Source: a bacterium (GTDB taxonomy: Bacteria > UBA9089 > CG2-30-40-21 > SBAY01). From it: a stretch of 8,544 nucleotides of DNA. The stretch is from NCBI GenBank assembly GCA_040757115.1, contig JBFLYA010000160.1:1-8544 (forward strand), written 5' to 3'. The translations under genes and the position numbers were made by a program. This document shows, one piece after another, positions 379 to 8,544 of the stretch. The notes under the pieces were generated by a model. It was given only the letters and a program-made list of their open reading frames with translations, searched no databases and was not told where the DNA came from. The stretch's first letter is position 1. Each line of letters starts with the position of its first letter.

Positions 379-1140
379 ATGAAAAAATGGAAAAAGATTG
401 TTTTATGGATAGCAGGAGGAATAGTGGTGATAATGAGTATATTGATTATTTATGTCGTTGATACCTTGTTTTATCTCTTCCCAAGAAGGGATACAGAGGC
501 AATACGGAAAATTTTGGTAGCAGATTTTAGACGAGAGACTAGCTGGCAAAGACATCATCGCACACCACCAATAATTTGGCCTTCCCCTTTTTATGAGCCT
601 AAATTAAAGAGAATGGGTAAATCAATACTTCCTGCGTTAATAGAAATAATAGAAGATGAGAAAGAAGATAGGTATGTTCGAGGATTTGCATCAGATTGCT
701 TTGAATTCGTGGGAGAAGAAGGGAAAAAATATGTACCCAGATTGATTAAGATTTTAAAACAAGGGGATGAGACAGGACAATGGTGTGCAGCAAACGCTTT
801 GGCTATTATTGCATATAAATTTGAAGATAAAAGTATTATAACTCCACTAACAGAAGCATATGTGAAAGATAATCACCCTTTTGTATGGGAATTAAGTAGA
901 GAAAAATCTTCATTATTTAAGGGTAATAAAAAAGCTATAGGACTACTAAGTGAATATTTATTGACCGAAAAAAAATATCATGGAATACGGCGTACAGTAG
1001 CTGAAATATTAGGGAATATTGGAGATAAGAGGGCAATTGAGCCTTTAAAGGAGATATTAAAAAGGAAGGATGAACATCCGCATGTTAAAAAAGCCGCTGA
1101 AGAGGCTTTAAAAAAAATGTTAAATAAAGGAAATGAATAA
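379..1140 (+). CDS. Membrane-anchored HEAT-repeat protein (copy 1)
   Basis: The protein has 253 residues. The N-terminus is lysine-rich (K2, K3, K5, K6) and is followed by one hydrophobic segment at about 7-27, with no signal peptidase site, so it reads as a signal anchor with the rest outside the cytoplasm (inference from the positive-inside rule). From about residue 81 to the end it is made of paired amphipathic helices of HEAT / PBS-lyase-HEAT type: about 81-111 (SILPALIEII), 116-147 (YVPRLIKILK), a weaker unit at 151-180, 184-214, and the clearest at 216-247 (GDKRAIEPLKEILK). HEAT solenoids normally bind proteins and are not catalytic; I see no enzymatic motif. The start is supported by GAGGAG at 362-367, 11 bases upstream. 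The stop is two bases before the remnant ORF at 1143, suggesting co-transcription. It is paralogous to the protein at 1522: both carry an RMG..I.P.LIEI block followed by VR..A. Partner and exact role are unknown. Confidence 0.85.
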   Translation: MKKWKKIVLWIAGGIVVIMSILIIYVVDTLFYLFPRRDTEAIRKILVADFRRETSWQRHHRTPPIIWPSPFYEPKLKRMGKSILPALIEIIEDEKEDRYVRGFASDCFEFVGEEGKKYVPRLIKILKQGDETGQWCAANALAIIAYKFEDKSIITPLTEAYVKDNHPFVWELSREKSSLFKGNKKAIGLLSEYLLTEKKYHGIRRTVAEILGNIGDKRAIEPLKEILKRKDEHPHVKKAAEEALKKMLNKGNE

Positions 1141-1509: not shown

Positions 1510-1521
1510 TGTGATGGAAAA

Positions 1522-2844
1522 ATGTTAAAGAAGATATTAATAATTGGTGGTATTTGTTTAGTGATGTTAGTGATAGCTTGGGTGTTGATGATAGGTTACT
1601 TTACTGTAGTGGTAAAGACAAAAGATGAGAAGACAATTCGTCTTGTAGACCAGAATAAGATTATGAAAATTACGGCAATTCCAATTAAGATTACTAATGC
1701 CATCATACCACCACCTAAACTTGAAAGTAAAAAACCAGAAGAAAGAAAAAGGATAATCATAAACTATCTAAAAGAAGCGATTGAGGCAAATGATAAATGG
1801 CTATTATTAAAGGGTGTAGAAATAGATAAGCGGGTACTAAGAATGGGTGATGTTATAGTTCCAGTATTAATAGAGATAGTTAGGGATACTAAACAAGAAG
1901 GTAGAGTGCGTCAATATGCAGCAAGTATGTTAGAAGAGATGTTTCGTTGTAAGAATAAAACACTTGAAGAATTAATCGGAGATGAAGAATGGAAAAAGGA
2001 TGTATTTACAGAATCGTTTAACTTAATTAAAAAGATAGATATTGAGAGTGCAGTGCCTACATTATTAGAAGCGATTGAGGATGAAAATGCGTTCACGAAA
2101 GAATGTATAATCGGGATATTCGAAGAAATGAAAGATAAAAGAACAGTTGAGCCTTTGCTAAAGATTTTAGATGAGCAAAGAGTTTATCAATGGGAAACAA
2201 ACTTAGGGAAAAGAACAAAAGAGGCATTGTATAAGATATTGAAGGAGACCCATGACCGAAGAATAGCTGAGGCATTAGATAGAAATGGAAGTGATTATGG
2301 GGTTTGGCTATGGGTAGATGAGGCAGGAAGACAAAAAGTAATTAACAGAGCTATGGATATATTAAGAGGTAATTATACCCCAGAAGTTAAACTTACCTAT
2401 GAAGATGAAGAGAATATAAAGGCATGGGTTAAGAGGGAGAGGAGAAGATCTGCAGAAGAATTCAGAGAATTAGAATTAGAAAGAAAGAGGGTTGCAATTA
2501 AAGAAAAGGCTATTGGATTATTAGGTGTGGCTAAGGCAAAAGAGGCTGTGCCTATGTTGATTGAGATGTTAGAGAAAGAGGTAGAAAAGAGAGATTTTTT
2601 TGGTATTATGGGAAATATAATTACTGCATTAGGGAAAATAGGAACTGATGAGGCAGTAAATGTATTAATAGAGTTATGCCGAGCCAAACAGATAGGGGGG
2701 GGGGTAACAATAGAAGCATTGGGAGAATCAAAAAATAGAAAGGCTATACCATTTCTTGAAGAAGTGCTAAACGGTAATGATAAGTTTAATGGTGAATTAG
2801 CAGCAAAGGCCTTAAAGAAAATAACAGGCAAGGAATATAAATAA
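1522..2844 (+). CDS. Membrane-anchored HEAT-repeat protein (copy 2)
   Basis: The protein has 440 residues from ATG 1522. MLKK is followed by a hydrophobic anchor at about 5-31 with no cleavage site, so the body is probably outside the cytoplasm. HEAT-type helix pairs appear at about 108-140 (RMGDVIVPVLIEI), across the middle (AVPTLLEAI and DKRTVEPLLKIL), and as a C-terminal block at about 326-438 (KEAVPMLIEML, GTDEAVNVLIEL, RKAIPFLEEVL). Between them, about 294-330 is a very charged predicted helix (WVKRERRRSAEEFRELE) that may be a coiled coil. It is a longer paralog of the protein at 379, sharing the membrane anchor and the RMG..I.P.LIEI block. No catalytic motif is visible; HEAT solenoids are protein-binding scaffolds. 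A promoter at 1315-1343 and a leader hairpin precede it. The giant exported protein starts 20 bases after its stop, so they likely form an operon. A ten-G run (codons 391-395) makes this gene prone to frameshift. Confidence 0.85.
   Translation: MLKKILIIGGICLVMLVIAWVLMIGYFTVVVKTKDEKTIRLVDQNKIMKITAIPIKITNAIIPPPKLESKKPEERKRIIINYLKEAIEANDKWLLLKGVEIDKRVLRMGDVIVPVLIEIVRDTKQEGRVRQYAASMLEEMFRCKNKTLEELIGDEEWKKDVFTESFNLIKKIDIESAVPTLLEAIEDENAFTKECIIGIFEEMKDKRTVEPLLKILDEQRVYQWETNLGKRTKEALYKILKETHDRRIAEALDRNGSDYGVWLWVDEAGRQKVINRAMDILRGNYTPEVKLTYEDEENIKAWVKRERRRSAEEFRELELERKRVAIKEKAIGLLGVAKAKEAVPMLIEMLEKEVEKRDFFGIMGNIITALGKIGTDEAVNVLIELCRAKQIGGGVTIEALGESKNRKAIPFLEEVLNGNDKFNGELAAKALKKITGKEYK
2695..2704 (+). 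repeat. Ten-G homopolymer inside HEAT gene copy 2
   Basis: An uninterrupted G10 encodes Gly392-Gly394 and the first base of Val395. Loss of one G gives TAA immediately after the glycines (394 residues). Gain of one G gives eleven altered residues and then TAG (405 residues). Either change removes the last HEAT unit. Confidence 0.9.
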
Positions 2845-2864
2845 TAATAAGAGGTGATAAAATT

Positions 2865-5800
2865 ATGAGAAAGATTAGATTATTAGTAGTATTGCTAAGT
2901 CTATTCGTAGGTTTTAGTGTTTATGCGGATGATGGACAAGGAGGAGGAGATGAAATGGAAATAGAAATTCCACTTGCCCCCCCACCACCGCCGCCACCTC
3001 CTCCGATACCATCTCCAACTGGCAATGAAAAAGTATATATAGTCTATCGGGATACAAATGGTAAAATGGCAAAAACCCCATTGGAAGCGGTAACAGGTAA
3101 AACTGGGCATGTAGGATTTTTGATTGTTATGCCAGATGGGACAAGTTATGTGATTGATACTATTCCTGATCCCGACGGAAATGGTCCACTAAGAGATGGT
3201 GTTAGAGAGACAGATTTGAATGGATTTAATGATGGTCAGGCACAAAACCTGTGGTTCATTGATACAGAATTAACTTCAACGGAAGTAGTGGACATTATTA
3301 AGTGGTTAATTACACCAGATAAGCCAGATACTCCTGAGATAGAAGGAGTTTGGGGTAAACCTTATACCAATCCACCTACTCACATAGGAGGACAACAAAA
3401 AGGTCCTAATCAATACGATTGTGTGGGATTGGTTGAGGTGGCATTGGAAATGTTGGCTAAAAAATACCCTCTAAATCATCCTGAAAGAGAACGACTTAAT
3501 CTTACACCCGATGAAGTTGAAAAATGGTGGCTCCTCCCTTATGAACAGCTAATGGAGGCATTAGCGAAATTAAAAGAAGTTGATATTACGGATATCTTTG
3601 GCGGAGAAGAGCTACCACAGCCGACTGATCCTGGGAATGATCATCCTGATGATTATATAGGGGTGTTGGGAAAACCAATACTTAAAGAGACTGAGGGACC
3701 AGTGGCTAATGTGGCGGTACTTTATCATGGATTCCCGAAAGAGGCATCAAGTATTATTGGTGATTCTTGCTGGATAACCCCTGAGTTTGAAATTGACCAG
3801 GTTACTATGTACCCTGCTATAATTATTCCCTCTGGTGGATTTTTTGGGCTGGAGACTTCACAGATACTAAAGTATAAATTAAGGAAATATGTAGAAGATG
3901 GTGGGGTATTAGTCTGTTTTGCCCAACAACAGGGGTATGAGTTTAATTGCCTGCCTGGAACTATTACTGCTTATGGGTGGACAGAAGACCAATCCTGCTG
4001 GCAAAATGCCGCTTATATCGAGACTGACCACCCTATATTCGCCTCACAACAAGATGCTACCTTAGATGTTGGTATTGACGGCTACTTCACTCAATGGCCT
4101 GATGATGCTACGATTTTACTTCGCAGAACCAAGAATCAAATGCCTGCTATGTTAATGTATAAATATGGCAAAGGCTATGTCATTGCCTCGACTATTTATA
4201 CTGACTTTAGTTCAGCCTATAATCGAGCATCAGATGAAGAAATAAGGTTAGTCAATGACCTGATTAGCTATGTTGAGGATATAAATAAAGAAATTCCAGA
4301 GTATAAAGCTGGGGATGAAATAAACCTGCCCATAAAAATCACCTACGAGGAATTCTATGAATTCTTCCAGGAGACCCCAGTTAGGGCAACACAAGTAGAA
4401 TTCACTATCCGCGATTCTGATAAAAAAACACTCTCTACCAGCATCTTACCACTTGCCACTCCGCTTGCTTTGGGGCAATCCACCCAAATCAATTTCACCA
4501 CCACCTGCCCAGACAAATTAGGCATCTTCTGGATAAACTATACCTTAAAAGACCAGGCAGGTAATATTCTCAAGCCAGAGACAAAAGGTGAACGATTTGT
4601 TGTATCCAAGCATCTAACTGGCAGTACAAAGATTGAAGGTTATTCTATCTGGGCGATAGCAGAGGAACAAATTTTAGTTGGAGCTACAGCTACCTATACT
4701 GTTTTTGTTCGCAATGATACGGATGAAGATTTTGAAGGCAATATTGGAATAGGAGTGCATGAAGAAAAGATTAATGGTGGAAGATGGTGGGCATATGTAG
4801 GTACAATTACGGATGTTACTATCCCTAATCATTCCCAAGCTAGCTTTACCTTTACCAGAAAAATGTATATTTCCGCCAGTACCTACTTTGGTCTGTTCCC
4901 TAAAGAAACTACTTGCAATACCTATTTTCTGAAAGGAGCAATAGCTACCTGCGAAAAAGGTGTACGAGTAATGAAACCAGTAGTAGATATTCAAATTATC
5001 ACAGATAAAAAAATTTATGATCAAGGGGATAAAGGAACTATTACTTTAATCTTGCAAGATAAAGACAATACATATAATTTAAGCTATAATCCGGAGGTTA
5101 GACTTAAGATAACTGACCCAATAGGAGATGAAGTTTTTGCTACTAATACAACTTTAAGTATTACTTCTAATGGTTCTGTATCTACTACAATAGGTTTCCC
5201 TTTAATTACAGCAATGGGAGGGGTATATTTGATAAAAGTGGATGTTTATAACAATGAGAGTAAAATAGGAGTATGGACAAGTTCTTTTGAAATACCAGAA
5301 CCTGAAATTAGCACTAATATAATTATTCCAGAGATTTTTGTACCAGATTCTACTAACACTACTTCATTTTTATTAAATAACATTAGTGCTAAAAGTATCT
5401 CAGGAGGTAGTATAACAATAGAGTTTAAAGACCAGGATTTAAACTTAATTTTTGGGAGTCAGAGTAATTTTGCGACATTATCAATATCTGGCTCTACTAC
5501 TGTAAATTTTAATATTCCAATTGAAAGTATTAAGTTTGGTACATACAAACTTGTTTATATTATATATTATGAAGGGAAAAGTCTGATAGGTAAAAAAGAG
5601 ATTTCTTGTAGTGCTATTACTAAAGTAAACCTTGATAAACCAGAATATCGAATAAGAGAAACTCTTATAGGTACATTGACTTTAATCAATTCAGGTAGAT
5701 TTAAAGAGGATTTAGAAGCCACTATAACCATAGATGACTTAAATTTTGTTCCTACTAATACATTCAGTTTATTACCAGAGCAAAAATGGACTTTACCACT

Positions 5801-8544
5801 CAATATATCTATTCCAGAAACTTTAACCTCTGGGTATCATTATGGGACTATAAACCTTCATCTTAGCACTTCTACTAAATCTACCCAATTTAAGTTTTAT
5901 ATTCCTCCTGCAGAATTAAAGATAGAGTTAGAGAAAAAAGATTACATAATTGGAGATATGGTAAATGTTACTATTAGTAATATAGGGGGTGTAGATGAAA
6001 GCTGTGATTATAAGATAAAATTGGCTGATAGTATGGGAGTTAAAATTTATGAAGAGAATAATAGAATTGATAAAATAGAATCGGGAAAAAATCAAATTAT
6101 TTCTTTCCTTATTTCTGACCAGGCAGTGACGGATAATTATGTTATAAGTATGGAATATTATGGAGAGGAAAGAGGGACTAAAACGGTTTTTTTACCTCTT
6201 AAGATAACTGGTGTGATTAGCAATGTAGATATCTCTCCTGATAAAACTTTATATTCCTTTGGAGAGCCTATCTCTATTCAAGCAGATATATTCAATCAAG
6301 GCTACCCTATAAATAATGGAAAACTTAATCTTAAAATATACAGGAATTTAAAAGAATTTAGTAAAATAGAGGGGATTTCACCTTCATCTATTGGTGTAGA
6401 TGATGATAATGTCTGGTTTACTATCAGCGAGAGTTTGATTAGATATAATAAGGTTACGGGCACAACTACTTTATATGATATAGCGGATGAGGTACCAAGT
6501 CTTTGTGTAGATGAAAATTATGTATGGTTTCTTGATCATGATACAGGATTAATAGAAAGGTTCAATAAAGAAAGCGGTCAAGTAGAAGATTTAGAGAAGA
6601 AAAATAAAGTAAAAGTAGGAAATGAAAAGTACTATTTTTATAAAGATATAACCCATGATAATCAAAATATATGGTTTACTTCCTTTTGTCTCAAATATTG
6701 TCCTCCAGAGCCATTAGAAGAAGAGCCATTATTTGTATTTGAAGTATTCTTATATCAATATAATAAATCTGGAGGTCAAAAGAGTATTATCTGGAATTAT
6801 TCAGTAGAGTCCACAGAAGAACCTGACATAATTAATTATCTCCCTCTTTGTGTAGATGACAGATATGTCTATTTTGGAGTAGAAAAGGTATATCCTGATG
6901 GAAATAAAGTACTTAGATATGATAAGACCAATGGAACTGTGATTATTCTATTAATCAGGAACGAAGAAATTACCTCACTTGCAGTGGATGATAACCATCT
7001 ATGGATTGGCACAAATGACAAATTAATATCTTGTAATAAAGATGGAGGTGCAGTTGAGGAATATTTTCAGGGAATGAAGATAACTTCACTTTGTAGAGAT
7101 AATAACTGGATATGGATTGCTACTAATGGAAATGGTTTGATAGAATATGATGAAAGAACAGAAAAGTTCCAGATATATACTACAGAAAATAGTGATATGT
7201 TAAGTAACAATATCACAACCTTATCGGCTAAAGATAGGGATGTATGGATGATTACAGATAAAGGTGTAGGCGAATATAGGGCAAAATTGGTAGAAGAAAG
7301 TATAAGTAATAACCTCGATATAGCGTCAAATGAGAAGAAATCAATGGTTATAGACATAGGCACACCTACAATCTGTGGTAAATACTATATAGATGCCAAA
7401 TTACTATCATCTTCAGGACAATTTATCGCCTTTGATTCAGAGAGTTTTTATGTTACTAAAGCTACAGTTACCTTAACATTTAACCTTGATAAGCCCGTGT
7501 ATAAACCGGATGAATTAATAACCATTACCGGAAAGGTTTATAACAAAGATTTAGTTTTGCCAGCATACAATCTTAATCTATACATAAACGCAGATGATAA
7601 AACGATATTAAGTGAAACAATTAATATAGGGACTAATTCACTCTACGAATTTATTGCTACTACTACAGCGACTAAGTCATTTACCATAGTTGCAGAGGTT
7701 GATGAGATAAGATTAGAAGAATATGTAGTCATTATAGAGGAGCCTTTAAAAATAGATATTACCGAAATAGGTAGTCCAAATAGAGGGACAAATACCTTTA
7801 CTATAAAATTAAATAACACCGGAGATGCAGAAACGGTAATAAATGGAAGATGGAAGATAGGAGATGAGGAGTGGCAGGAATTAGGGACAGTCACAATACT
7901 ACCAGGGGGAATAAAAGAAATTGCACTAAATTATCAATTCCCGCCAGATAATTATCAATCAGGTTATGCTACGCTTACCCTTGTTTTATCAGGGGATATA
8001 ACGGGAACATATACAGGACAGATAGAGTTTGGTGAAAAAGTTGATGTGAAGGTTGAACCAGAGATAGTCTATCCTTTGGGTTATGTAGAAGTACCATTTA
8101 CTATTACCAATCAAGGAAAACAGGATTCAGAATTTGAACTAACATTCTTATTGAATAAACAAGAGCAAAAGCAGAATATTAAAGTCTGTGCTTCTCCCAG
8201 ACCTAAAGTGCCTTCCTGGTTATTAAGTGAACCAAAGATAGTTATCAAGTCTAACCCTGTAAAGAATCCACACCCTGTAAAGAGTCCAGCAAAAGCACCA
8301 CAACCTGATTATTTGGAAGACATAATTAGAATAAATAGTGAATTCTATATCCCAAATGGCGGAACAATTACGGGTAGTCTTATCTATGAATTAACCGAAG
8401 GTGATTATTCCTTAAGTTATGAGTATTTTCGTGGTACTGGAAGTGCTAAGTTCAAGGTAGCAAAAGAAAACATTGCTAAGATTAAGGGGTTAACCGTAGA
8501 TAGTCCCCAGTTTAGAGTAAGGGTAGAAAATCCTGGCTCAAATG
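2865..8544 (+). CDS. Giant exported protein: permuted NlpC/P60-like, GATase1-like, Ig-like and propeller (3' end beyond window)
   Basis: The frame is open from ATG 2865 to the window end: 1,893 whole codons and no stop. GAGGTGAT (2851-2858) is a good binding site. Residues 1-21 are a type I signal peptide (cleavage likely after VYA), with no lipobox. P39-P47 is a nine-proline linker. About 55-250 looks papain-like: GHVGF (H82), a YVID strand, then YDCVGL (C186); His before Cys is the order in circularly permuted NlpC/P60 (YiiX/LRAT type) enzymes. About 279-470 resembles a class I glutamine-amidotransferase/ThuA Rossmann fold (AIIIPSGG, YVEDGGVLVCFA, YGKGYVIAS) without the GxCxG nucleophile motif, so it is probably not an amidotransferase. 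From about 480 on there are repeated Ig-like/macroglobulin-like beta domains, several opening with DK..Y (D714, D924, D1542; related at 1023 and 1126). About 1174-1475 is a seven-bladed propeller. Beta domains continue to the end. The location is surface or secreted; the substrate is unknown. Permuted NlpC/P60 relatives can act on lipid or amide bonds, so peptidoglycan cleavage should not be assumed. Confidence 0.8.
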   Translation, partial: MRKIRLLVVLLSLFVGFSVYADDGQGGGDEMEIEIPLAPPPPPPPPPIPSPTGNEKVYIVYRDTNGKMAKTPLEAVTGKTGHVGFLIVMPDGTSYVIDTIPDPDGNGPLRDGVRETDLNGFNDGQAQNLWFIDTELTSTEVVDIIKWLITPDKPDTPEIEGVWGKPYTNPPTHIGGQQKGPNQYDCVGLVEVALEMLAKKYPLNHPERERLNLTPDEVEKWWLLPYEQLMEALAKLKEVDITDIFGGEELPQPTDPGNDHPDDYIGVLGKPILKETEGPVANVAVLYHGFPKEASSIIGDSCWITPEFEIDQVTMYPAIIIPSGGFFGLETSQILKYKLRKYVEDGGVLVCFAQQQGYEFNCLPGTITAYGWTEDQSCWQNAAYIETDHPIFASQQDATLDVGIDGYFTQWPDDATILLRRTKNQMPAMLMYKYGKGYVIASTIYTDFSSAYNRASDEEIRLVNDLISYVEDINKEIPEYKAGDEINLPIKITYEEFYEFFQETPVRATQVEFTIRDSDKKTLSTSILPLATPLALGQSTQINFTTTCPDKLGIFWINYTLKDQAGNILKPETKGERFVVSKHLTGSTKIEGYSIWAIAEEQILVGATATYTVFVRNDTDEDFEGNIGIGVHEEKINGGRWWAYVGTITDVTIPNHSQASFTFTRKMYISASTYFGLFPKETTCNTYFLKGAIATCEKGVRVMKPVVDIQIITDKKIYDQGDKGTITLILQDKDNTYNLSYNPEVRLKITDPIGDEVFATNTTLSITSNGSVSTTIGFPLITAMGGVYLIKVDVYNNESKIGVWTSSFEIPEPEISTNIIIPEIFVPDSTNTTSFLLNNISAKSISGGSITIEFKDQDLNLIFGSQSNFATLSISGSTTVNFNIPIESIKFGTYKLVYIIYYEGKSLIGKKEISCSAITKVNLDKPEYRIRETLIGTLTLINSGRFKEDLEATITIDDLNFVPTNTFSLLPEQKWTLPLNISIPETLTSGYHYGTINLHLSTSTKSTQFKFYIPPAELKIELEKKDYIIGDMVNVTISNIGGVDESCDYKIKLADSMGVKIYEENNRIDKIESGKNQIISFLISDQAVTDNYVISMEYYGEERGTKTVFLPLKITGVISNVDISPDKTLYSFGEPISIQADIFNQGYPINNGKLNLKIYRNLKEFSKIEGISPSSIGVDDDNVWFTISESLIRYNKVTGTTTLYDIADEVPSLCVDENYVWFLDHDTGLIERFNKESGQVEDLEKKNKVKVGNEKYYFYKDITHDNQNIWFTSFCLKYCPPEPLEEEPLFVFEVFLYQYNKSGGQKSIIWNYSVESTEEPDIINYLPLCVDDRYVYFGVEKVYPDGNKVLRYDKTNGTVIILLIRNEEITSLAVDDNHLWIGTNDKLISCNKDGGAVEEYFQGMKITSLCRDNNWIWIATNGNGLIEYDERTEKFQIYTTENSDMLSNNITTLSAKDRDVWMITDKGVGEYRAKLVEESISNNLDIASNEKKSMVIDIGTPTICGKYYIDAKLLSSSGQFIAFDSESFYVTKATVTLTFNLDKPVYKPDELITITGKVYNKDLVLPAYNLNLYINADDKTILSETINIGTNSLYEFIATTTATKSFTIVAEVDEIRLEEYVVIIEEPLKIDITEIGSPNRGTNTFTIKLNNTGDAETVINGRWKIGDEEWQELGTVTILPGGIKEIALNYQFPPDNYQSGYATLTLVLSGDITGTYTGQIEFGEKVDVKVEPEIVYPLGYVEVPFTITNQGKQDSEFELTFLLNKQEQKQNIKVCASPRPKVPSWLLSEPKIVIKSNPVKNPHPVKSPAKAPQPDYLEDIIRINSEFYIPNGGTITGSLIYELTEGDYSLSYEYFRGTGSAKFKVAKENIAKIKGLTVDSPQFRVRVENPGSN
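8255..8290 (+). repeat. 18-bp tandem duplication in a Pro/Lys-rich linker
   Basis: CCCTGTAAAGAATCCACA (8255-8272) is followed directly by a near copy (8273-8290) starting CCCTGTAAAGAGTCCA. It encodes PVKNPH then PVKSPA within a proline- and lysine-rich stretch that looks like a disordered hinge between beta domains of the giant protein. Confidence 0.65.

What the first reader, a model, noticed from the sequence alone, without database searches (positions are those of the whole stretch)
3030..3620. Candidate circularly permuted papain-like enzyme at the head of a giant exoprotein
GHVGFLI (H82) comes before YDCVGLVEVA (C186). In ordinary NlpC/P60 peptidases the Cys motif (DCSGL-like) precedes the His motif (HVGIY-like). 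The reversed order is the hallmark of the permuted YiiX/YaeF and LRAT-like groups. A second histidine (H173) lies 13 residues before the Cys. Fusion of this fold to a GATase1-like domain and a propeller is unusual as far as I know.
Basis: partly seen in the sequence, partly recalled or inferred. Interest (0 to 1): 0.6.

Follow-up and report, generated by a model that had tools for sequence, protein, structure and literature searches.

The report
Permuted papain-like head, swappable exoprotein
The front of a very large secreted protein from an uncultured bacterium really does look like a rearranged (circularly permuted) papain-type enzyme of the YiiX/YaeF kind, and relatives of the same giant protein carry quite different enzymes in that position, each apparently with its own partner gene.

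Summary
Confirmed. The head of the 1893+ aa secreted ORF (residues ~54-253) carries His82 (GHVGFLI), Asp98 and Cys186 (YDCVGLVE), all invariant in five homologues from four genomes of the phylum (Desantisbacteria-type MAGs). H173 is not conserved. Aligned with 25 Peptidase_C92 (YiiX/YaeF) proteins, the three residues fall on that family's His-Glu-Cys triad in every alignment mode; only His and Cys are invariant over 29 sequences. Profile-profile score is 40.6 against a shuffle mean of 12.3 (max 19.7 of 200). A relative's head hits PF05708 at E ~1e-5, just under the gathering score. Two predicted models, one made without any C92 sequence, both retrieve papain-like NlpC/P60-type structures first, nearly all permuted. 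It is therefore a divergent, C92-like permuted NlpC/P60 enzyme, probably an envelope or lipid-amide hydrolase. The unexpected part is the setting. The rest of the protein, starting sharply at a DHPDD motif, is shared across the phylum, but its head is exchanged: C92-like, M23 peptidase, lipase-type hydrolase, unassigned types, none, or an Rhs fusion. C92-like heads sit next to a membrane-anchored HEAT gene, lipase heads next to a LolA-like gene. Function is untested.

The parts
379..1140 (+). HEAT-repeat protein with N-terminal membrane anchor (253 aa), first of two upstream HEAT genes
   Evidence: Pfam HEAT_2 E 3.9e-16; 72% identical gene at the same place in G001
1516..2844 (+). HEAT-repeat protein with N-terminal membrane anchor, immediate upstream neighbour of the exoprotein (gap 20 bases)
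   Evidence: HEAT_2 E 4.7e-19; homologues directly upstream of C92-like heads in G001 (41% identity, gap about 4) and G015 (36%)
2851..2858 (+). ribosome-binding site GAGGTGAT
   Evidence: read directly
2865..8543 (+). giant secreted protein, 1893 codons, runs off the contig
   Evidence: (contig is 8544 bases)
2865..2927 (+). signal peptide (MRKIRLLVVLLSLFVGFSVYA), by inspection
   Evidence: read directly; same kind of start in G001 and G015
2970..3020 (+). Pro-rich linker between signal peptide and head
   Evidence: read directly
3024..3623 (+). circularly permuted papain-like (C92/YiiX-like) head, residues 54-253
3108..3110 (+). predicted catalytic His82 (GHVGFLI)
   Evidence: invariant in 29 of 29 sequences
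3156..3158 (+). Asp98, predicted third polar residue; 16 after the His (15 in BcPPNE)
   Evidence: invariant in heads, D/E/H column in C92; PMC3142127
3363..3365 (+). Tyr167, candidate for the superfamily's fourth catalytic residue
   Evidence: a Tyr lies 14-19 residues before the Cys in the heads; alignment column ambiguous; compare YiiX Tyr115/Cys128
3420..3422 (+). predicted catalytic Cys186 (YDCVGLVE), at the start of a predicted helix
   Evidence: invariant in 29 of 29 sequences; helix 137-151 of the model
3639..3653 (+). DHPDD motif, start of the shared core and boundary of head exchange
   Evidence: D[HRN]PD[DE] found before the GATase1-like domain in 15 of 17 core proteins scanned; BLAST alignments with otherwise-headed proteins start at residues 226-312, most at 248-259
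3654..4289 (+). GATase1-like domain (residues ~264-475)
   Evidence: 19-member alignment A5; Glyco_hydro_42M matches in 5 of 19, best E 1.6e-4
4995..5267 (+). MG2 (macroglobulin-type Ig-like) domain, residues 711-801
   Evidence: Pfam E 6.4e-10
6957..7019 (+). Reg_prop propeller repeat, residues 1365-1385, just below cut-off
   Evidence: Pfam 19.1 bits vs 20.4
8046..8177 (+). CARDB-like Ig domain, residues 1728-1771
   Evidence: Pfam 23.1 bits vs 22.7

Best explanation
Residues 54-253 form a circularly permuted papain-like thiol enzyme closest to the YiiX/YaeF (C92) family: His82 on one strand and Asp98 on the next activate Cys186 at the start of a C-terminal helix, which attacks an acyl carbonyl and forms an acyl-enzyme (shown: residue conservation, register, fold match; inferred: the chemistry). 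The protein is exported (signal peptide), so the enzyme acts outside the cytoplasm, most likely on a lipid amide or ester, a lipoprotein acyl chain or a peptide of a cell envelope (inferred from what characterised relatives do). The long GATase1-like/Ig-like rest of the protein serves as a shared presentation or targeting scaffold (inferred). In relatives the same scaffold carries other envelope-type hydrolases in the same position (shown), so the head is an exchangeable catalytic module, and the membrane-anchored HEAT protein encoded just upstream is probably its cognate partner: inhibitor, immunity protein or folding/anchoring factor (inferred). The confidence below is for the permuted papain-like, C92-like enzyme; for the envelope target I would say 0.6, for the cognate partner 0.35.
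For: Invariant H82, D98, C186. Triad columns coincide with C92 in all MAFFT modes; only His and Cys invariant over 29 sequences. hhalign 84%, E 7e-6, score 40.6 vs shuffles 12.3 +/- 2.2, max 19.7 of 200. PF05708 E 9.5e-6 for L003:2354-2791, 26.2 bits vs 27. Model with C92 rows: 3kw0 Z 7.4, 2if6 7.1, PLAAT4 6.8, Aichivirus 2A 6.7, TseH 5.8. Model from heads only: TseH 5.1, 2A 4.2, PLAAT4 4.0, CLN5 4.0, 3kw0 3.2, DeSI-1 3.1 fill the first seven rows. Interchange of heads on one core: M23 (E 4e-28, 2e-8), Lipase_2/abhydrolase (up to E 3e-11), boundary at DHPDD. Core tree: C92-like heads one clade (99/99), M23 heads in three separate places. Neighbour genes: HEAT in 3 of 3 readable C92-like contexts, LolA-like family in 5 of 5 lipase contexts, each set mutually homologous, no cross-similarity.
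Against: The window's own sequence has no Pfam hit at E<1, and no head was seen to clear the PF05708 gathering score. Most of the profile score comes from the His half: with halves swapped the score is still 38.3. Models are of moderate (pLDDT 66, pTM 0.66) or low (43, 0.38) confidence, Z values are under 8, and the better model used C92 rows. The strict GD motif is not kept (GN/GE/GT). Substrate, activity and the partner's role are untested. Partner contexts are few and partly orthologous.
Confidence: 0.85

Rival explanations
1. The head is an ordinary (non-permuted) NlpC/P60 endopeptidase with DCVGL as the Cys motif and a His further downstream.
For: The Cys motif YDCVGLVE resembles DCSGL; NCBIfam RipC aligns there weakly, E 0.19; the NlpC profile aligns over it, P 11%.
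Against: No HVGI-like His motif follows the Cys; the conserved GHVGF lies before it. Two natural relatives end 7 residues after the Cys, which would leave no His at all. NlpC aligns over 26 columns only; C92 aligns over 130.
Confidence: 0.04
2. It belongs to the LRAT/PLAAT or PPPDE branch of the permuted group rather than to the YiiX/YaeF (C92) branch.
For: PLAAT4 and Aichivirus 2A (LRAT-like) score about as well as YiiX and BcPPNE in the structure comparison; differences under 1 Z are ties.
Against: The only relevant family library match is C92; the LRAT Cys motif NCEHF is absent (read directly). LRAT and PPPDE profiles were not compared by hhalign.
Confidence: 0.1
3. A catalytically dead permuted papain fold kept as a binding domain.
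For: The GD motif is lost and the Tyr position is uncertain; two G015 copies are truncated right after the Cys helix start.
Against: All three catalytic residues are invariant in every homologue, with a polar third residue at the same place as in C92 proteins.
Confidence: 0.08
4. Concerning the setting: head and neighbour differences between core proteins are ordinary domain accretion in slowly diverging paralogues, not an exchange system; HEAT and LolA-like neighbours are coincidental operon members.
For: Heads cluster on the core tree (9 changes, minimum 7, shuffled 13.4), as expected for rare events; few contexts.
Against: M23 heads lie in three separate places of the tree; similarity stops sharply near DHPDD; each head type has its own mutually homologous neighbour; G015 holds head-partner pairs without the GATase1-like core and with a 193-base identical stretch at both C92-like ends.
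Confidence: 0.4

Closest known systems
Peptidase C92, YiiX/YaeF family (PF05708; YiiX 2if6, BcPPNE 3kw0)
   Same: Order His-polar-Cys, spacing His to acidic residue 16 vs 15, Cys at the start of a late helix, triad in register, structural match
   Different: Sub-threshold similarity; D instead of E as third residue; G-[NET] instead of GD; insertion before the Cys; head of a >1893 aa secreted protein instead of a frame of at most 770 aa
Tox-Act1 and TseH (T6SS effectors with permuted NlpC/P60 domain; PMC12994826)
   Same: Permuted papain-like core acting outside the producer's cytoplasm; TseH is the top structural match of the heads-only model
   Different: Not seen as T6SS cargo here; own signal peptide; N-terminal position on a giant scaffold; activity unknown
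LRAT/PLAAT and picornavirus 2A proteins
   Same: Fold and residue order
   Different: No NCEHF Cys motif; no family hit
NlpC/P60 endopeptidases (PF00877)
   Same: DCxGLV-type Cys motif, HVGF-type His motif
   Different: Motif order reversed; profile aligns only over the Cys motif
Polymorphic toxin systems (Rhs and others)
   Same: Conserved long core, exchangeable catalytic module, adjacent partner gene that goes with the module; one core fused to and others next to Rhs/YD-repeat genes
   Different: Variable module at the N-terminus, partner gene upstream; no toxicity or immunity shown

Membership tests
Permuted NlpC/P60 (papain-like) group | Catalytic His and polar residue precede the Cys in sequence | tested here: met
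   H82, D98, C186 invariant; same columns as C92 in every alignment
Permuted NlpC/P60 (papain-like) group | Papain-like fold with permuted topology | tested here: met
   Two models, one without C92 rows, both give papain-like NlpC/P60-type chains, nearly all permuted, as the first rows, above unrelated ones; moderate Z, moderate/low model confidence
Peptidase C92 (PF05708) | Profile match above the curated cut-off | tested here: not met
   Best printed 26.2 bits vs 27 for L003:2354-2791; window itself none. Hence filed as C92-like, not as a formal member
Peptidase C92 (PF05708) | Acidic third residue about 15 after the His | tested here: met
   D98, 16 after H82; BcPPNE His49/Glu64
Peptidase C92 (PF05708) | GD motif on the first strand (superfamily trend) | tested here: not met
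   GN, GE or GT in the heads, next to an alignment gap; L034, L041, L049 and L053 among the C92 proteins also deviate, so the motif is not strict
Peptidase C92 (PF05708) | Active-site Tyr before the Cys (YiiX Tyr115) | tested here: inconclusive
   Tyr present 14-19 residues before the Cys in the heads, 13 in C92, but alignment column uncertain
Peptidase C92 (PF05708) | Hydrophobic lipid-binding S1 pocket and lipid-amide cleavage | not testable with these tools
   Needs a structure with ligand and assays
NlpC/P60 canonical (PF00877) | Cys motif precedes His motif | tested here: not met
   Order reversed; hhalign over 26 columns only
LRAT/PLAAT (PF04970) | NCEHF Cys motif | tested here: not met
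   YDCVGLVE instead; no Pfam match
Polymorphic toxin system | Conserved core with exchangeable catalytic module | tested here: met
   C92-like, M23, lipase-type, unassigned, headless and Rhs-fused versions of one core
Polymorphic toxin system | Module toxic to competitors and neutralised by the adjacent gene product | not testable with these tools
   Only co-occurrence of head type and neighbour gene seen

The most novel reading that the evidence does not exclude
These bacteria encode an N-terminally polymorphic exoprotein system: one giant secreted scaffold (DHPDD + GATase1-like + Ig/MG2/CARDB) whose first domain is swapped between unrelated envelope-attacking enzymes (permuted papain, M23 peptidase, lipase and others), each moving together with its own upstream partner gene (membrane-anchored HEAT protein, LolA-like protein), the mirror image of the C-terminal toxin plus downstream immunity layout.
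Probability: 0.35. Interest if true: 0.7.

Novelty: new variant of a known kind. Interest (0 to 1): 0.5.

Why it matters
Functions of bacterial permuted papain-like enzymes are poorly known. Here one sits in a natural exchange position with peptidoglycan-type peptidases and lipases, which narrows its likely target to the cell envelope and offers a directly testable enzyme/partner pair. If the exchange of heads together with neighbour genes holds, it points to a modular envelope-attack system in an uncultured phylum with the variable part at the opposite end from the classic polymorphic toxins.

Tried and rejected
Direct Pfam/NCBIfam/PHROGs/PADLOC searches with the window head: nothing useful. 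PDB sequence search with the window head or the heads-only profile: nothing; the A4 profile hits 2if6 at 1.4e-48 but contains C92 rows, so it is circular and not used. B1 metallo-beta-lactamase matches of the G015 copy are a short helix similarity, rejected. Plain Foldseek on the better model gave no match at E<=0.001; only the second-look aligner resolved it. The G118 hit (E 0.007) is an unrelated membrane protein. Viral-contig search: no relative. The own-genome NlpC hit G000:C153 is a repeat protein, not a core protein. The doubled-NlpC test shows the permutation for C92 (score 51.7 to 76.0) but gives no gain for the head itself, which is too weakly related to NlpC. Role of H173: rejected, not conserved.

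Full report
WHAT IS THERE. The window is a complete 8544-base contig of a 4.3 Mb draft genome; named relatives are Candidatus Desantisbacteria CG2_30_40_21 and a MAG, Yes70-06. ORF 2865-8543 (+) encodes at least 1893 residues and runs off the contig: signal peptide, Pro-rich linker, the head in question, a GATase1-like domain, MG2, a Reg_prop-like repeat just under cut-off and a CARDB-like Ig domain. H82 is at 3108-3110, D98 at 3156-3158, H173 at 3381-3383 and C186 at 3420-3422.

CONSERVATION. Five homologous heads were found in four genomes: the window, G001 (same genus), G007 (CG2_30_40_21) and two in G015 (Yes70-06). H82, D98 and C186 are invariant, H173 is not. A search of 386 genomes with the profile added only one false hit, and viral contigs gave none, so this head is rare in what could be searched.

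FAMILY. The window sequence alone matches no Pfam model over the head. The G015 head, which lacks the window's insertion after D98, matches PF05708 Peptidase_C92 at E 9.5e-6, 26.2 bits against a cut-off of 27; two of five heads match it at E<1. I collected 25 C92 proteins from 290 genomes. Profile-profile comparison gives probability 84%, E 7e-6, score 40.6, with H82 on the C92 His, D98 on its Glu and C186 on its Cys. Two hundred column-shuffled versions score 12.3 +/- 2.2 with a maximum of 19.7. In every MAFFT mode the three columns coincide, and in the 29-sequence alignment only His and Cys are invariant. Canonical NlpC/P60 aligns only over the Cys motif (26 columns, 11%). That C92 is itself permuted relative to NlpC is visible in the same data: doubling the NlpC profile raises its score against C92 from 51.7 to 76.0 in one continuous alignment. 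Caveat: most of the head-C92 score comes from the His half (38.3 with the halves swapped), so the Cys half rests on the motif, its position and the fold.

FOLD. A model from the five heads only has low confidence (pLDDT 43, pTM 0.38). A model with C92 rows added reaches pLDDT 66, pTM 0.66, with 75-90 over most of the strands and the Cys helix; His lies on a strand, Asp on the next and Cys at the start of a helix. The second-look alignment of the better model puts BcPPNE (Z 7.4), YiiX (7.1), PLAAT4 (6.8), Aichivirus 2A (6.7), TseH (5.8) and CLN5 (5.0) on top, then drops to unrelated folds at 4.4 and below. Because that model saw C92 sequences, the fairer test is the heads-only model: its first seven rows are TseH, 2A, PLAAT4, CLN5, 2A, BcPPNE and the deSUMOylase 2wp7, again papain-like NlpC/P60-type proteins (assignments of TseH, LRAT-like, YiiX-like and PPPDE proteins to the permuted group: PMC12994826, PMC3142127, PMC10318531; that of 2A and CLN5 is from general knowledge). 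Individually weak, jointly this is hard to get by chance.

THE SETTING. The part of the protein after the head begins with DHPDD (residue 259) and has relatives in 12 of 98 searched genomes, nearly all of the phylum. Its GATase1-like domain matches Glyco_hydro_42M weakly (best E 1.6e-4), and I see no class I GATase nucleophile elbow. What precedes it differs: C92-like in the window, G001 and G007; Peptidase_M23 in G005 and G011 (E 4e-28 and 2e-8) and, by eye, the end of an M23 domain in G001:C341; a lipase-type alpha/beta hydrolase in G000:C148, G001 twice, G002 and G007; unassigned heads in G014:C68 and G001:C341 (no Pfam match); no head in G003, G005:C394 and G014:C26; and a fusion to an Rhs/YD-repeat protein in G017. 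BLAST between the window protein and the otherwise-headed proteins begins at residues 226-312, mostly near the DHPDD boundary, and none of them aligns with the head. On a tree of the core domain the C92-headed proteins are one clade (99/99) while M23 heads lie in three separate places.

NEIGHBOUR GENES. Directly upstream of the C92-like heads is a HEAT-repeat gene with an N-terminal membrane anchor in all three readable contexts (window, gap 20 bases; G001, about 4; G015, about 150), and these are mutually homologous (26-41%); G007 is cut by the contig end. Directly upstream of all five lipase-type heads (gaps 10-24 bases) is a gene of one family, mutually 52-68% identical, matching LolA_like weakly in four of five. 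The two sets are unrelated. In G015, which has no match to the GATase1-like part, two C92-like frames and HEAT genes alternate in tandem; both C92-like frames end seven residues after the Cys, and the copies share a 193-base identical stretch across that end; the first follows a fragment resembling the MG2 region of the core. This looks like a rearranging locus.

MECHANISM. Shown: conserved triad, family similarity and fold match, head exchange and neighbours; the signal peptide is by inspection. Inferred: a thiol acyl-enzyme mechanism outside the cytoplasm. Characterised relatives act on acyl-amide or ester bonds of lipids: YiiX binds a fatty acid and is proposed to be a lipid amidase (PMC3142127), LnsA takes part in lipoprotein N-acylation (PMC7387801), and Tox-Act1 is a phospholipase effector (PMC12994826). 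That the alternative heads are M23 peptidases and lipases also suggests a cell-envelope target. The HEAT protein may inhibit, anchor or help fold the head; this is untested.

VERDICT. The finding is right in substance. The head is a divergent C92-like permuted papain enzyme (the formal C92 cut-off is missed narrowly). The more interesting result is the exchangeable head on a shared giant scaffold with head-specific neighbour genes; it rests on few contexts and needs wider sampling.

Noticed in passing
L003 1-3785 (G015:C68): Core MG2-like fragment, truncated C92-like frame, HEAT gene, second C92-like frame with signal peptide, HEAT gene; both C92-like frames end at DCVGLVEVG and share a 193-base identical stretch.
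   Followed up: partly
L104 5327-7630 (G017:C143): Rhs/YD-repeat C-terminal core fused in frame to the DHPDD + GATase1-like module; Rhs genes also lie directly upstream in L095 and near L105.
   Followed up: no
L101 89-5968 and 7300-10188 (G014:C68): Core proteins with an unassigned N-terminal domain containing VHSHAGS and FIAGCRSF motifs, perhaps a caspase/CHAT-like His-Cys peptidase; no Pfam match.
   Followed up: partly
L098 2-1276 (G001:C341): Core protein with a HEVNGHRRQF motif in the head, perhaps a metallopeptidase; no Pfam match.
   Followed up: no
L088 213-7319 (G000:C153): 2369-aa repeat protein (TITNNTISGN repeats, parallel-beta-helix type) with a C-terminal end like a type IX secretion sorting domain, in the window's own genome.
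   Followed up: no
window 3984-4031 (residues ~374-389): EDQSC and a following His are almost invariant in the GATase1-like domain of all core proteins, whatever the head; possibly an active site of its own.
   Followed up: no
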